Shown piece after piece: positions 34,262-37,303 of a DNA stretch of 64,000 bases. The stretch is from NCBI GenBank assembly GCA_902794395.1, contig CADBHB010000004.1, positions 21,604-85,603 of the forward strand, read 5' to 3'. A program made the translations under genes and the position numbers. The notes under the pieces are model-generated. The model made no database searches and had not been told where the DNA came from. It was given only the letters and a program-made list of their open reading frames with translations. This stretch comes from an uncultured Ruminococcus sp. (GTDB taxonomy: Bacteria > Bacillota > Clostridia > Oscillospirales > Acutalibacteraceae). Numbering within the stretch: position 1 is the first letter of the stretch; the number at the start of each line of letters is the position of its first letter.

Positions 34262-34510
34262 ATGAGATTACGTAAGCAGGAATTGGGAGACAGAAATCTG
34301 GTAGGCAATCGTGTGGAGCTTGTCAGGAAGCAGAAGGGCATGAAACAAAAGGAACTGCTGGCTCAGCTTCAGGTCAACGGAGTTGACATGAACGCGTCCG
34401 GTCTTTCCAAGCTTGAAGGTCAGATCCGTTTCGTAACCGATGTTGAACTGGTGGCGCTTGCCGATATCCTCGAGGTCTCGGTCGACTACCTGTTGGGCAG
34501 AGAGAAATAA
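34262..34510 (+). CDS. Xre-family helix-turn-helix regulator
   Basis: An 82-residue protein that is almost entirely one HTH_XRE domain: a helix with NRVELVRKQKGMKQKELLA, a recognition segment NASGLSKLEGQ, and the typical end ALADILEVSVDYLLG. GGAGAGAG lies before ATG 34262. It is flanked by a repeat-rich upstream region and several hairpins downstream, and lies 280 bp before the isolated ~640-nt transcription unit. Control of that unit or of its own promoter is plausible but inferred only from proximity. Small solo Xre proteins also occur in phage remnants and conjugative elements. Confidence 0.88.
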   Translation: MRLRKQELGDRNLVGNRVELVRKQKGMKQKELLAQLQVNGVDMNASGLSKLEGQIRFVTDVELVALADILEVSVDYLLGREK

Positions 34511-34554
34511 AGCTTAGCCGTTCTTCCTCCAAAAGATGTAATGCTTTTGGTTTT

Positions 34555-34582
34555 GAGAGCCGTTTATCGGCTCTCTTTTCTT
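34555..34582 (+). terminator. Intrinsic terminator after Xre gene
   Basis: GAGAGCCG and CGGCTCTC pair around TTTAT and are followed by TTTTCTTTT, 45 bp after the stop. Confidence 0.8.
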
Positions 34583-34624
34583 TTGCCCCGATCCATCAGG
34601 GGTTTTCCGCAACTTTTAGAAAAA

Positions 34625-34709
34625 CCCTGAAGGCTTTTTGACCTTCAGGGCATTTGATTTATGTTATTTTGCGTTGGATTACAAAAAAAGAGAGGTGCTT
34701 TTGACCTCT
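34625..34709. other. Two further perfect hairpins in the Xre-ncRNA gap
   Basis: CCCTGAAGG and CCTTCAGGG (34625-34650) form a 9-bp perfect stem; AGAGGT and ACCTCT (34691-34709) form a 6-bp perfect stem. Their loops are alike (CTTTTTGA and GCTTTTG). No gene lies between them. They may be redundant terminators shielding the promoter at 34793, or operators. The rest of 34710-34792 is AT-rich with nothing recognised. Confidence 0.45.
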
Positions 34710-34792
34710 AACATCTATTATTATATCACAACACAACAGGGTTTTCAAGGGCTTTTTGTAAAATAAAATTTAAAATAATTTTATAAAAAGTG

Positions 34793-34820
34793 TTGACATT
34801 GTGAAATAATATGGTATAAT
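34793..34820 (+). promoter_or_regulatory. Near-consensus promoter of the isolated RNA/peptide unit
   Basis: Perfect TTGACA (34793-34798) and perfect TATAAT (34815-34820) have a 16-bp spacer in AT-rich DNA. It is the closest match to the SigA consensus in the window, so strong transcription starting near 34827 is expected. Confidence 0.8.
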
Positions 34821-34870
34821 ATAGACAAAGAAAAACAAAAACAAACGGAAACGTAAAGGAGGTCTTTAAT

Positions 34871-34978
34871 ATGAAGATGAAGGTTTTCCAAATCCGACTG
34901 ATTAAAGATTTCATTCGGAGCTTACCGCCCAATGTGGAAGCCCAAAGCTTTTGGGCACAGGGAAGCGAAGCTTGCTAA
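34871..34978 (+). CDS. 35-residue peptide ORF in the isolated transcription unit
   Basis: AAAGGAGGT at 34855-34863, a full match to the anti-Shine-Dalgarno, precedes ATG 34871 by 7 nt, and the frame runs 35 codons to TAA at 34976. The peptide starts MKMKVFQIRLIKDFIRSLPP: a basic, amphipathic N-terminal half without a classical signal peptide. The C-terminal half is polar and ends in a lone cysteine (QGSEAC). I know no family. A perfect 7-bp hairpin (34940-34956) lies inside the coding part. It could be a real small protein, a signalling or toxin-like peptide, or a translated leader whose ribosome remodels the RNA behind it. Confidence 0.5.
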   Translation: MKMKVFQIRLIKDFIRSLPPNVEAQSFWAQGSEAC

Positions 34979-35238
34979 GCAGAATAGGCTGATTATTTCA
35001 TTGTTAAAAAAACAAATATTATTTAAACGAATCACGACCTGTATTCGCTGCCGAGGAATCACCACACTTCCTTAAAATCTCTTTCTGATTATTTTACATA
35101 TAGATTCCTGGGACTTAGTAAGCGGTTGTTTCGGTGCCGCCCGAAGGTATTTGGGGGCAATTGATAATTTTACAATTTAATATTTTTACTTTTGAATTTC
35201 AGGATCTTTCCTAATCTACAGAATAGGAGATTAGTCCC

Positions 35239-35259
35239 ATGAGAAGGTTTAGCTTTTAA
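35239..35259 (+). other. Mini-ORF with ribosome site (6 codons)
   Basis: AGGAG at 35225-35229 is followed 9 nt later by ATG 35239; the frame encodes MRRFSF and stops at TAA. A parallel mini-ORF MYKVRTL (35345-35368) has GGGAGG with 9 nt spacing. Both share the arrangement GGAG...TCCCATG...AAGG. They may be true mini-ORFs or a repeated RNA hairpin that only looks like an initiation site. Confidence 0.3.
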
Positions 35260-35426
35260 CAGACATCCTAACGAAACCGGAGAAGGTCCAATGTAATACT
35301 TAATTTTAAACGGTTCATTATTCTGATAAGGGAGGACAATTCCCATGTACAAGGTAAGGACACTTTAGATTTCAACAACAAAAAATTGGAGTGAGTCCCA
35401 AGAACAGTTTAAATTCAAAGTAACTT

Positions 35427-35460
35427 GAAAGCCGAGATGATGCGCACATCTCGGCTTTTC
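35427..35460 (+). terminator. Intrinsic terminator of the isolated RNA unit
   Basis: GAAAGCCGAGATG pairs with CATCTCGGCTTTTC (one mismatch near the base) around ATGCGCA, followed by T-rich sequence (TATTTCTGTTTTTCGTTTTTT). Confidence 0.88.
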
Positions 35461-35494
35461 TATTTCTGTTTTTCGTTTTTTGCAATATCTCATA

Positions 35495-35528
35495 AAGGCA
35501 AGGCGCGCCGTGTTGTGCGGTGTTGCCT
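35495..35528. repeat. Intergenic inverted-repeat element, copy C (short form)
   Basis: AAGGCAAGGCGCGCCG followed by TGTTGTGCGGTGTTGCCT. The core AAGGCAAGGCGCGCCG is identical to that in the copy at 2978, and the right end matches the copies at 9731 and 48568. The left terminal part (AAGGCTATACCG) seems absent, so this is a half-element. It lies just after the isolated RNA's terminator. Confidence 0.55.
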
Positions 35529-35535
35529 ATAGAAG

Positions 35536-35564
35536 ACAGGGTCGGCTCAATAAGCCGACCCTGT
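35536..35564. terminator. Strong hairpin between the isolated RNA and pgm
   Basis: ACAGGGTCGGCT and AGCCGACCCTGT pair perfectly (12 bp) around CAATA. It is 21 bp downstream of the minus-strand phosphohexomutase stop. A T-rich tail is stronger on the plus strand (TTTAATT) than on the minus, so it may serve both directions. Confidence 0.6.
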
Positions 35565-35584
35565 TTAATTGAGTCTGTTTGTAT

Positions 35585-37303
35585 TTAGATACCCAAGATC
35601 TCCTTTGATGAGGCTACCAGTCCCTCGCAAATCTTGAGCGCATCGTCCTTGTCCTTGCCGACCGCTGTGATATACAGCTTTATCTTCGGCTCGGTGCCGC
35701 TGGGACGGATTATCACCGCGTTGTCATTTTCCAAATGCAGGGCGATGACATTGGAGGTGGGGAGGGTGAGGTCTACAGTGCTTCCGGTGACAAGGTCGGT
35801 CTCCTTCTTAAGCTGATAGTCGCTGACCTTCACTACCTTGCAGCCGTTTACCGCAGCGGGGATATTCTCTCTTACCTTGGTCATCATCGCAGCCATCTTC
35901 TGCATGCCCTCAGCGCCCTCAAACTCAAAGGCGAAGGTGCGGTTGAGATAGTAGCCGAATTCCTCATACAGACCGTCGATGACCTGTGCCAGCGACTTGC
36001 CCTCTTTCTTGTAGTAAGCCGCCATTTCGGCTACCAGCATAGAGGCGACTACCGCGTCCTTATCTCTGACATAGGTGCCCGCCAAATAGCCGTAGCTTTC
36101 CTCAAAGCCGAAGAGATAGCGGTTCTCCTCGCCTTTTTGTTCGAGGTTGAGGATGACCTCTCCGATGTATTTAAAGCCTGTAAGCACGTTTTTCAGCTCG
36201 CAGCCGTATTTCTCGCAGAGCTTGTTGATAAGCTTGGTGGTGACGATGGTCTTTACCACAACGGGCTGCTCGGGCAGCTTGCCTGCCGCCTTTTTGCAGG
36301 AGAGGATGTAGTTTGTTAGCATTACGCCGTCCTCGTTGCCCGTGATAAGGCGGTAGCTGCCGTCGTAGTCCTTAACGGCTATACCCACTCTGTCGGCGTC
36401 GGGGTCGGTGGCGAGCAGCAGATCGGGCTGCACCTTTTCGCACAGCTCCAGACCCTTTTGCAGCGCTTCCTTTATCTCGGGGTTGGGGTAGGGGCAGGTG
36501 GTGAAGTTACCGTCGGGCAGCTCCTGCTCTTTGACGATCTCAACATCTTCCACGCCTATAGTCTTGAGCACGCGCCTTACCAGCTTGTTGCCGCAGCCGT
36601 TGAGCGGGGTGTAGACGACCTTGAGTCCCGCGCCCTTGCAGATTCCGGGATTGACCTGCTGCTCGAGCACCTTTTCAAGGTAGGTGTCATACACGCTGTC
36701 GTCAATATACTCTATCATGCCCGAAGCGATCGCCTCGTCAAAATCGGCGAGCTTTACGTCGTTGAACATATCGAGCTTTTGTATCTCGTCATATACCGCG
36801 GTGGCGGCGGCGTCGGTCATCTGGCAGCCGTCCTCGCCGTATGCCTTGTAGCCGTTGTATTTTGCGGGGTTGTGGCTGGCTGTAACCATGATGCCCGCCT
36901 GACACTTGAAGTAGCGCACCAGATAAGAGAGCACGGGAGTAGGCTCCAGCTCCTTGGTGATGTACACCTTGATGCCGTTTGCCGCCAGTACTCTTGCGGC
37001 TTCCACCATGAACAGATCAGCTTTTATGCGGCTGTCGTGCGAGATAGCCACAGCGCCCTTGCCGTACTTGTTGAGCACGTAGTTTGCCAGACCCTGTGTA
37101 GCCTGACGCACCACATAGATGTTCATTCTGTTTGTGCCGGCGCCGATAACGCCGCGCAGACCTGCCGTGCCGAATTTCAGCGCGGTATAAAACCGGTCGT
37201 AAATCTCATTGTCTTTGCCGTTGATGTCCTTAAGTTCAGTCACCAAATCCTTATCGTCCTTGGCGTTTTTACACCAGCTGTCATAGAGTTTTCTGTAATC
37301 CAT
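35585..37303 (-). CDS. Phosphoglucomutase/phosphomannomutase (alpha-D-phosphohexomutase)
   Basis: A 572-residue phospho-sugar mutase of the PgcA-like long type that interconverts hexose 1- and 6-phosphates for cell-wall and glycan precursors. The phosphoserine loop TASHNPAKYNGYK places the catalytic serine at S143. The metal loop ATDPDADRVG and the sugar-binding FEESYGYL motif follow, and RPSGTEPKIK near the C-terminus binds phosphate. ATG 37303 was chosen for its AGGGGGAA ribosome site; a longer frame to 37387 adds an unconserved hydrophobic stretch. It is monocistronic and converges with the isolated RNA unit. Confidence 0.95.
   Translation of the reverse strand: MDYRKLYDSWCKNAKDDKDLVTELKDINGKDNEIYDRFYTALKFGTAGLRGVIGAGTNRMNIYVVRQATQGLANYVLNKYGKGAVAISHDSRIKADLFMVEAARVLAANGIKVYITKELEPTPVLSYLVRYFKCQAGIMVTASHNPAKYNGYKAYGEDGCQMTDAAATAVYDEIQKLDMFNDVKLADFDEAIASGMIEYIDDSVYDTYLEKVLEQQVNPGICKGAGLKVVYTPLNGCGNKLVRRVLKTIGVEDVEIVKEQELPDGNFTTCPYPNPEIKEALQKGLELCEKVQPDLLLATDPDADRVGIAVKDYDGSYRLITGNEDGVMLTNYILSCKKAAGKLPEQPVVVKTIVTTKLINKLCEKYGCELKNVLTGFKYIGEVILNLEQKGEENRYLFGFEESYGYLAGTYVRDKDAVVASMLVAEMAAYYKKEGKSLAQVIDGLYEEFGYYLNRTFAFEFEGAEGMQKMAAMMTKVRENIPAAVNGCKVVKVSDYQLKKETDLVTGSTVDLTLPTSNVIALHLENDNAVIIRPSGTEPKIKLYITAVGKDKDDALKICEGLVASSKEILGI

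What the first reader, a model, noticed from the sequence alone, without database searches (positions are those of the whole stretch)
34793..35464. Isolated, strongly promoted ~640-nt transcript with little coding capacity
A consensus SigA promoter (TTGACA-N16-TATAAT) and a strong terminator enclose about 640 nt with only a 35-codon ORF at the start. The remaining 450 nt is full of complementary segments: AGGAATC/GATTCCT, TGGGACT/AGTCCCA (two alternative partners), CTAATCT/AGATTAG, and a GCCCAAA/TTTGGGC hairpin inside the ORF. The next gene is on the opposite strand, so the region cannot be a leader or attenuator for it. This fits a large structured non-coding RNA, possibly of the ornate-RNA kind, or a dual-function RNA with a peptide.
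Basis: partly seen in the sequence, partly recalled or inferred. Interest (0 to 1): 0.8.

Follow-up and report, generated by a model that had tools for sequence, protein, structure and literature searches.

The report
Stand-alone RNA carrying tandem micro-genes
A bacterial genus carries a stand-alone RNA that makes no normal protein but offers ribosomes one conserved short peptide gene followed by a row of tiny start-then-stop genes, so it looks built to catch and hold ribosomes rather than to be a plain non-coding RNA.

Summary
In detail: a consensus promoter (34793-34820) and an intrinsic terminator (35427-35459) bound a transcript unit of about 635 nt that matches no Rfam family. Relatives show what a single sequence could not. 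ORF1 (20-35 aa) ends in a conserved RSLPPN motif with an in-frame Shine-Dalgarno (GGAG) 10 nt before the Asn codon. It is followed by a train of micro-ORFs, each with its own Shine-Dalgarno, an AUG, usually 0-6 further codons, and a stop, mostly 50-60 nt apart. In the window they are MRRFSF*, M* and MYKVRTL*. Stops within seven codons are in frame in 75 of 79 dereplicated micro-ORFs (38 and 26 in the other frames) and in 64 of 66 from 20 further loci (33 and 24). The middle (34941-35155) is a covarying fold. ORF1 occurs in 81 of 161 genomes of the genus and convincingly in no other genus sampled in the order. Gene context varies and is often convergent, so it is not a leader. Best reading: a ribosome-engaging ('parking') RNA. 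Whether it titrates ribosomes in trans or only protects itself is undecided. No expression data were available.

The parts
34793..34820 (+). Promoter TTGACA-N16-TATAAT with TG before the -10; transcription start inferred near 34827
   Evidence: 12/12; nearly invariant in 19 relatives
34856..34863 (+). Shine-Dalgarno AAAGGAGG of ORF1
34871..34978 (+). ORF1, 35 codons, MKMKVFQIRLIKDFIRSLPPNVEAQSFWAQGSEAC; conserved core IKDFIRSLPPN
   Evidence: 60 loci with RS(L/F)PP; dN/dS about 0.06
34917..34920 (+). Internal Shine-Dalgarno GGAG within the Arg-Ser codons of RSLPPN, 10 nt before the Asn codon 34931-34933
   Evidence: Arg codon always xGG and Ser codon always AGY in 47 dereplicated loci; GGAG in 20 of 20 further loci; kept in L217 where Ser is replaced
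34940..34956 (+). Hairpin starting 7 nt after the Asn codon; its 5' arm also pairs at long range (helix 1 of the domain)
   Evidence: stem of 4 bp or more in 32 of 43 dereplicated loci, shuffles mean 13.0 max 22
34941..35155 (+). Structured domain (six helices, A4 columns 114-338); overlaps the end of ORF1
   Evidence: 91.9% of cells paired; 24 pairs changed on both sides against 9.4 in shuffles
35226..35259 (+). Micro-ORF module a: GGAG 35226-35229, ATG 35239, MRRFSF, stop TAA 35257-35259
   Evidence: frame test
35279..35296 (+). Micro-ORF module b: GGAG 35279-35282, ATG 35291 directly followed by TAA (start-stop)
   Evidence: the start codon is GTG in L099 and L100
35331..35368 (+). Micro-ORF module c: GGAGG 35331-35335, ATG 35345, MYKVRTL, stop TAG 35366-35368
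   Evidence: relatives MYTLRTL TAA, MYTVRTL TAG, MYKVRTL TGA, MYT TAA
35388..35402 (+). Fifth module: GGAG 35388-35391 with AAG (35400-35402) where the others have ATG; no start codon
   Evidence: kept in the 11 aligned relatives
35427..35459 (+). Intrinsic terminator
   Evidence: different stems at the same place in relatives

Best explanation
This is an independently transcribed RNA gene whose conserved working parts are places that load ribosomes and hold them. Ribosomes initiate strongly on ORF1. They are expected to slow at its RSL-Pro-Pro-Asn end, where three signals coincide: a Pro-Pro pair, an internal Shine-Dalgarno at initiation-like spacing from the Asn codon, and a hairpin whose base lies at +16 from the first Pro codon. 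Further ribosomes initiate at each downstream micro-ORF and terminate after usually one to seven codons. The sites are mostly 50-60 nt apart, so each can hold its own ribosome. The RNA would thus act as a ribosome-parking array. My preferred function is that it titrates initiating ribosomes (or initiator tRNA, release or recycling capacity) and so reports or buffers translation state. Supported by comparative sequence data: the unit, conservation of ORF1 and of its internal GGAG, in-frame stops, spacing, terminator, covarying domain. Inferred: actual transcription, ribosome occupancy, pausing, and any effect in trans.
For: One discrete unit with a conserved promoter and terminator (50 of 60 loci). 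173 micro-ORF starts in 59 of 60 loci (the exception is cut by a contig end), 58 of 60 with two or more. Stop within 7 codons: 162 of 173 in frame, 88 in +1, 55 in +2; dereplicated 75 of 79 against 38 and 26; composition shuffles mean 36.6, maximum 49 of 79. 20 further loci: 64 of 66 against 33 and 24. Stops differ in kind and place (MICL TAA or TAG, MICLF TGA; MRS TAA, MR TGA) and ATG becomes GTG in two loci. Spacing 50-59 nt in 73 of 114 intervals and in 33 of 46 further ones. The RSLPPN block has dN/dS about 0.06 yet keeps GGAG through codon choice. A hairpin follows the Asn codon in 32 of 43 dereplicated loci. In 15 of 50 loci the terminator stem starts 16-18 nt after the A of the last AUG. 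Similar SD-to-AUG contexts in this genome often start ordinary genes: of 20 loci retrieved for the pattern, 3 are these micro-ORFs and 10 open frames of 80 aa or more.
Against: No expression or ribosome data. The module definition (CC before ATG, GG upstream, ATG itself) was chosen after seeing the alignment, so conservation of ATG and of the Shine-Dalgarno is built into those counts; only the stop, frame and spacing tests are free of it. The loci are related, so counts are not independent; the 20 further loci are from the same genus. 11 of 173 modules lack a stop within 7 codons. ATGs outside modules in these AT-rich regions also have an in-frame stop within 7 codons in 149 of 296 cases (counted there from the ATG itself). 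The fifth module in the window's group keeps its Shine-Dalgarno but has AAG, not ATG, which translation alone does not explain. 11 of 43 loci show no 4-bp hairpin after Asn. Half the genus (80 of 161 genomes) shows no ORF1 match. Nothing tests an effect in trans.
Confidence: 0.45

Rival explanations
1. The functional part is the structured domain (or base pairing with targets). The micro-ORFs only keep ribosomes on an AU-rich, otherwise untranslated RNA and protect it in cis from RNases or Rho.
For: The domain covaries strongly in the window's group. Known bacterial minigenes act in cis on stability, for example axe-txe (abstract of PMC8708949) and the six-codon LEE4 minigene that shields an AU-rich leader from RNase E (introduction of PMC8708949).
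Against: In subfamily 2 the transcript is only about 330 nt in several loci and lacks the long domain, while ORF1 and the micro-ORFs remain. The micro-ORF number is expanded in some loci (up to 7), which looks like selection on the sites themselves.
Confidence: 0.27
2. A dual-function RNA whose real product is the ORF1 peptide (a small regulatory or membrane peptide), in the manner of RNAIII; the micro-ORFs are secondary.
For: ORF1 has a strong Shine-Dalgarno and protein-level conservation.
Against: The constant part is the C-terminal RSLPPN placed at or near the stop, with the N-terminal half variable, as in a peptide read by the ribosome. Micro-ORF stops are also under selection. No Pfam match.
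Confidence: 0.12
3. A minigene RNA that works by peptidyl-tRNA drop-off, tying up particular tRNAs (AGA-Arg in many second codons).
For: Second codons AGA and TAC/TAT are frequent in subfamily 1. Drop-off minigenes are a known phenomenon (recalled).
Against: The second codon is not constant: Phe, Ile, Cys, Glu or an immediate stop also occur. Thirty of 173 modules are bare start-stop, with no second tRNA at all.
Confidence: 0.08
4. A 5' leader or attenuator for the downstream gene.
For: In subfamily 2 some loci precede a trkA-like gene on the same strand (label from reading the sequence). Of 49 loci with a downstream ORF of 100 aa or more, 18 are on the same strand.
Against: 31 of those 49 are convergent, the window included, and downstream ORFs fall in 23 BLAST clusters, some of which may be fragments or spurious ORFs. 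A terminator ends the unit.
Confidence: 0.04
5. A sponge for an RNA-binding protein that recognises Shine-Dalgarno regions, such as CsrA.
For: Multiple GGA-containing sites with a weak small hairpin (141 of 173 modules have GGA; 22 of 74 with 4 bp or more against a shuffle mean of 11). The ATG-less fifth module also fits a protein site.
Against: CsrA is over its cut-off in 0 of 10 genomes of the genus, 8 of which carry the RNA (one sub-threshold match, in G068, which lacks the RNA). 18 of 79 dereplicated modules lack GGA. In-frame stops are unexplained.
Confidence: 0.04

Closest known systems
Bacterial minigenes (axe-txe two-codon mini-ORF; EHEC LEE1 and LEE4 minigenes; B. subtilis ycbK mini-ORFs) - PMC8708949, abstract and introduction seen
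   Same: Very short ORFs (two to six codons) with their own or a shared ribosome-binding site; occupancy can protect RNA or alter downstream translation
   Different: There a minigene sits in the leader of a protein gene and acts on it in cis; here several stand in tandem on an RNA with no protein cistron after them
RAPP-like (R-x-P-P) translation arrest peptides such as ApdA and ApdP - PMC12992588, abstract and passages seen
   Same: Short ORF, an Arg-...-Pro-Pro motif near the C-terminus
   Different: Here R-S-L-P-P-N, one residue longer between Arg and Pro-Pro; no downstream localisation gene; arrest not shown
Start-stop (AUGUAA) stalling element of plant NIP5;1 - PMC11915504, listing and start of abstract only
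   Same: AUG directly followed by UAA, proposed to hold a ribosome
   Different: Eukaryotic 5' untranslated region acting on its own mRNA; here Shine-Dalgarno-driven, bacterial and free-standing
OLE, ROOL, GOLLD and raiA-motif RNAs - PMC12286853 and PMC11706538, listing only
   Same: Long structured bacterial RNA from its own unit
   Different: No Rfam match; here the 3' half and, in subfamily 2, most of the RNA is a micro-ORF array
Dual-function RNAs such as RNAIII (recalled, no call)
   Same: About 500 nt with a small peptide ORF
   Different: ORF1 is first and its conserved end is RSLPPN; tandem micro-ORFs have no counterpart that I know of

Membership tests
Ornate large RNAs (OLE, ROOL, GOLLD) and raiA motif | Match to the Rfam covariance model at its gathering score | tested here: not met
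   0 matches of 4227 families in the whole window; none of these families among the 15 sub-threshold matches up to E 10 in 34500-35700
6S RNA | Match to RF00013 | tested here: not met
   The genome's 6S RNA lies elsewhere (contig C5, 91.1 bits); no match here
Minigene | Start codon with Shine-Dalgarno and an in-frame stop after one to a few codons | tested here: met
Minigene | Located in the leader of a protein gene that it regulates in cis | tested here: not met
   Terminator before the next gene; nearest downstream ORF convergent in 31 of 49 loci
Arrest peptide, RAPP-like | R-A/G/S/P-P-P type core near the C-terminus | tested here: inconclusive
   Pro-Pro and Arg are fixed but two residues (Ser-Leu/Phe) separate them
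Arrest peptide, RAPP-like | Ribosome stalling | not testable with these tools
   needs toeprinting
CsrA-sponge RNA (CsrB/RsmZ type) | CsrA encoded in the genome | tested here: not met
   0 of 10 genomes over the cut-off
Leader or attenuator | Co-directional downstream gene conserved with the element | tested here: not met
   18 same strand, 31 convergent, 11 of 60 loci without an ORF of 100 aa or more in the stretch

The most novel reading that the evidence does not exclude
A new class of free-standing RNA, the micro-ORF array RNA: a ribosome sponge or translation-state sensor that acts in trans. Tandem Shine-Dalgarno/start-stop sites, preceded by a Pro-Pro-Asn pausing ORF, hold several ribosomes at once and so compete with mRNAs for initiation; the number of sites sets the dose, as binding-site number does in protein-sponge RNAs.
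Probability: 0.3. Interest if true: 0.92.

Novelty: categorically new. Interest (0 to 1): 0.78.

Why it matters
Annotation pipelines call such a stretch empty: the ORFs are one to seven codons long and the RNA has no Rfam family. If the array is occupied as the sequences predict, it would be a natural RNA whose substrate is the ribosome itself rather than a metabolite, a protein or another RNA. It would make a testable case for competition for ribosomes as a regulatory device, and would show that minigenes, so far described (in what I saw) as cis elements in leaders, can be the whole content of a gene. The comparative signature (Shine-Dalgarno, AUG, early in-frame stop, ribosome-scale spacing, terminator) can be searched for elsewhere.

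Tried and rejected
tRNA or tmRNA: none in the window. Presence outside the genus: with the ORF1 profile, 3 of 4 in-genus genomes among 394 of the order had strong matches (E 3.2e-8 or better). The other 20 genomes at E 0.05 or less were weak (best 8.2e-4); I inspected only that best one and it shows no such unit. The DNA search gave two short weak matches in other genera of the order, not followed up.

Led nowhere: the pattern had a wrong gap (50-80; the window has 49), so it missed the window itself and spent the one genome-contig scan on 11 hits that I judged irrelevant from pattern and titles without inspecting them. The corrected pattern hit one viral contig, read, where it has no such unit. 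Small hairpin over each Shine-Dalgarno: only moderately supported (22 of 74 with 4 bp or more, shuffle mean 11, 2 of 2000; 61 of 74 with 3 bp or more, mean 54, 36 of 2000); many modules lack it.

Papers: nine searches. No free-standing micro-ORF array was seen in the listed results, which are the top 3 to 15 of each search; that is not proof of absence. One search found no relevant paper naming RSLPPN.

Rows dropped: the second G070 place (contig end) was not fetched; L117 (G487) was left out of the 60-locus analyses because the script picked a wrong place, and was later read as L217; L069's reported terminator was discarded as false; near-identical loci were removed for the dereplicated counts. 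Two of the 22 further loci (L209, L217) escaped the script and were read by eye. Both carry ORF1-like and micro-ORF sequences; L209's ORF1 Shine-Dalgarno is GGGGG; L217 has RRLPPN and seems to lack the -10 and the ORF1 Shine-Dalgarno.

Full report
What was given and what is there. The finding is a transcript unit at 34793-35464. The promoter is a perfect TTGACA-N16-TATAAT (34793-34820) and the unit ends in a 13-pair terminator (35427-35459). A 35-codon ORF lies at 34871-34978. No Rfam family matches the window, and only chance-level matches appear up to E 10 in 34500-35700. The 636-nt strand folds better than 20 of 20 shuffles (z -3.39). Upstream lie rpiB and an 82-aa ORF with weak helix-turn-helix matches under Pfam's cut-off; downstream is a convergent phosphoglucomutase gene.

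Relatives. A DNA search of 148 related genomes found matches at E 0.001 or less in 27, 25 of them in the own genus including the window's genome. A sequence-only model of promoter plus ORF1 (R1) gave 62 strong places (E below 1e-7) in 60 of 120 genomes of the genus; weaker matches, present in all 120 at E 1 or less, were taken as noise. The ORF1 peptide profile (A3) then matched 81 of all 161 held genomes of the genus, and 42 of 81 high-quality ones. Among 394 genomes sampled across the order it matched strongly only in the genus: 3 of 4 in-genus genomes, and none of 390 others at better than 8.2e-4. So the element is genus-restricted as far as searched, near single-copy (G065 has two), and missing or undetected in half the species.

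ORF1. 61 loci were retrieved and oriented. In 60 of them (L117 excluded, where the script chose a wrong place) there is a 20-35-codon ORF with a Shine-Dalgarno, containing RS(L/F)PP; one, L094, is cut by the contig end. In 47 dereplicated sequences Arg, Ser, Pro, Pro and Asn are invariant and Leu is Phe in 6. Third codon positions vary freely (mean entropy 1.26 bits against 0.28 and 0.14 for positions one and two in the last seven codons), and a rough dN/dS over the last nine codons is 0.06. Yet the Arg codon is always CGG (44) or AGG (3) and the Ser codon always AGC (28) or AGT (19), which keeps the string GGAG. In L217, where Ser has become Arg, GGAG is still there. GGAG therefore lies 10 nt before the Asn codon, the same spacing as a start codon would have. 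In many loci the stop follows Asn at once or after one residue. A hairpin starts about 7 nt after Asn: a stem of 4 bp or more in 32 of 43 dereplicated loci, against a shuffle mean of 13.0 and maximum of 22. From the first Pro codon this is +16, about where the leading edge of a ribosome with that codon in the P site would be (the +16 toeprint rule is recalled, not from a call).

The micro-ORF train. After ORF1 come ATGs that have CC-N directly before them and a Shine-Dalgarno-like GG upstream: 173 in 59 of 60 loci, the exception being L094; 58 of 60 have two or more, and the maximum is seven. They encode peptides such as M, MF, MI, MR, MRS, MYI, MICL, MRRFSF and MYKVRTL. In the window: MRRFSF (ATG 35239), a bare ATG-TAA (35291) and MYKVRTL (35345). 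A stop falls in frame within seven codons in 162 of 173, against 88 and 55 in the +1 and +2 frames; after dereplication 75 of 79 against 38 and 26, and 36.6 on average (maximum 49 of 79) when the downstream bases are shuffled. Within two codons it is 29, 1 and 1 of 79. Relatives reach the stop by different routes: MICL with TAA or TAG, MICLF with TGA, MRS TAA, MR TGA, MYT TAA against MYTVRTL TAG, and two loci use GTG for ATG. ATGs of the same regions outside modules have an in-frame stop within seven codons in 149 of 296 (counted from the ATG itself), so AT-richness alone gives about half.

A second look on 22 further loci. Twenty-two loci not used before were fetched. The script recognised 20: GGAG in ORF1 in 20 of 20, a terminator in 17 of 20, and 66 modules with an in-frame stop within seven codons in 64, against 33 and 24 in the other frames. 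The two misses were read by eye and also carry ORF1-like and micro-ORF sequences. These are the same genus, so this is replication, not independent evolution.

Geometry. Successive micro-ORF starts are 50-59 nt apart in 73 of 114 intervals, and 44-67 in 96 of 114; in the further set 33 of 46 are 50-59. In 15 of 50 loci with a scored terminator the stem starts 16-18 nt after the A of the last AUG; in the others it is further away. In the window's group a fifth module keeps the Shine-Dalgarno and the spacing but has AAG in place of ATG, which I cannot explain by translation alone. Similar Shine-Dalgarno-to-AUG contexts occur 27 times in the own genome (8 for the reversed pattern), three of them here. 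Of the 20 retrieved, 10 open frames of 80 aa or more and another looks like EF-Tu cut by a contig end (recalled from its letters). The context is thus like that of ordinary gene starts.

Structure. In the window's group (11 sequences, A4) the region 34941-35155 folds into six helices: 91.9% of cells paired; 24 of 55 pairs with changes on both sides, against 9.4 +/- 2.0 in shuffles and 5-8 when slid. The structure was predicted from the same alignment, which favours it. Subfamily 2 (A5) has shorter RNAs, about 330 nt in several loci, without this long domain, so the common core of the family is promoter, ORF1, hairpin, micro-ORFs and terminator.

Context. Of 60 loci, 49 have a downstream ORF of 100 aa or more in the fetched stretch: 31 convergent and 18 on the same strand, in 23 BLAST clusters (some may be fragments or spurious). 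Upstream ORFs fall in 26 clusters. In the window's group the neighbours are conserved (HTH ORF upstream in 16 loci, pgm downstream in 17). The unit is thus kept while neighbours change.

Mechanism. Supported by comparative data: a free-standing transcription unit, a translated ORF1, micro-ORFs with selected stops, spacing, terminator, and a covarying domain in one subfamily. Inferred: ribosomes sit at the end of ORF1 and on each micro-ORF. I think the most likely use is to hold ribosomes, either to titrate initiation capacity or to report it (0.45 for the parking reading as a whole, 0.3 for a trans-acting sponge). The main rival is protection of the RNA itself, as known minigenes do in cis (PMC8708949, abstract and introduction). 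The Pro-Pro end resembles RAPP-like arrest peptides only in part (PMC12992588, abstract and passages). CsrA-type sponging is disfavoured because CsrA is not over its cut-off in any of 10 genomes of the genus.

Novelty. In nine literature searches I saw no free-standing tandem minigene RNA (top listings only), and Rfam has none. The building blocks are known; a gene made only of them, with no protein cistron, is not known to me. I therefore rate it categorically new, conditional on expression.

Noticed in passing
34748-34720 (minus strand): A second strong promoter-like site (TTGAAA-N17-TATAAT, 11/12, TG before the -10) points away from the RNA and runs straight into terminator-like hairpins at 34709-34691 and 34651-34624, so it would make only a very short RNA.
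   Followed up: no
34262-34510: 82-aa ORF with weak helix-turn-helix matches below Pfam's cut-off, lying upstream of the RNA on the same strand in 16 of the related loci.
   Followed up: partly
L083 (G029), 450-818 nt after the -10: The last micro-ORF (MYR) is repeated as three near-identical units of about 100 nt up to the contig end, as if the array grows by tandem duplication.
   Followed up: no
L113 (G005) and L209 (G540): Expanded arrays of two-codon ORFs (MC, MR, MR, MF, MI) with GAGGT-type Shine-Dalgarno sequences.
   Followed up: partly
L217 (G487): A locus where the -10 and the ORF1 Shine-Dalgarno seem missing and Ser is replaced in RSLPPN, yet GGAG and downstream micro-ORFs remain; possibly a decaying copy.
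   Followed up: no
35540-35565: A further GC-rich hairpin (GGTCGGCT...AGCCGACC) between the RNA's terminator and the convergent pgm gene, likely pgm's own terminator (read by eye).
   Followed up: no
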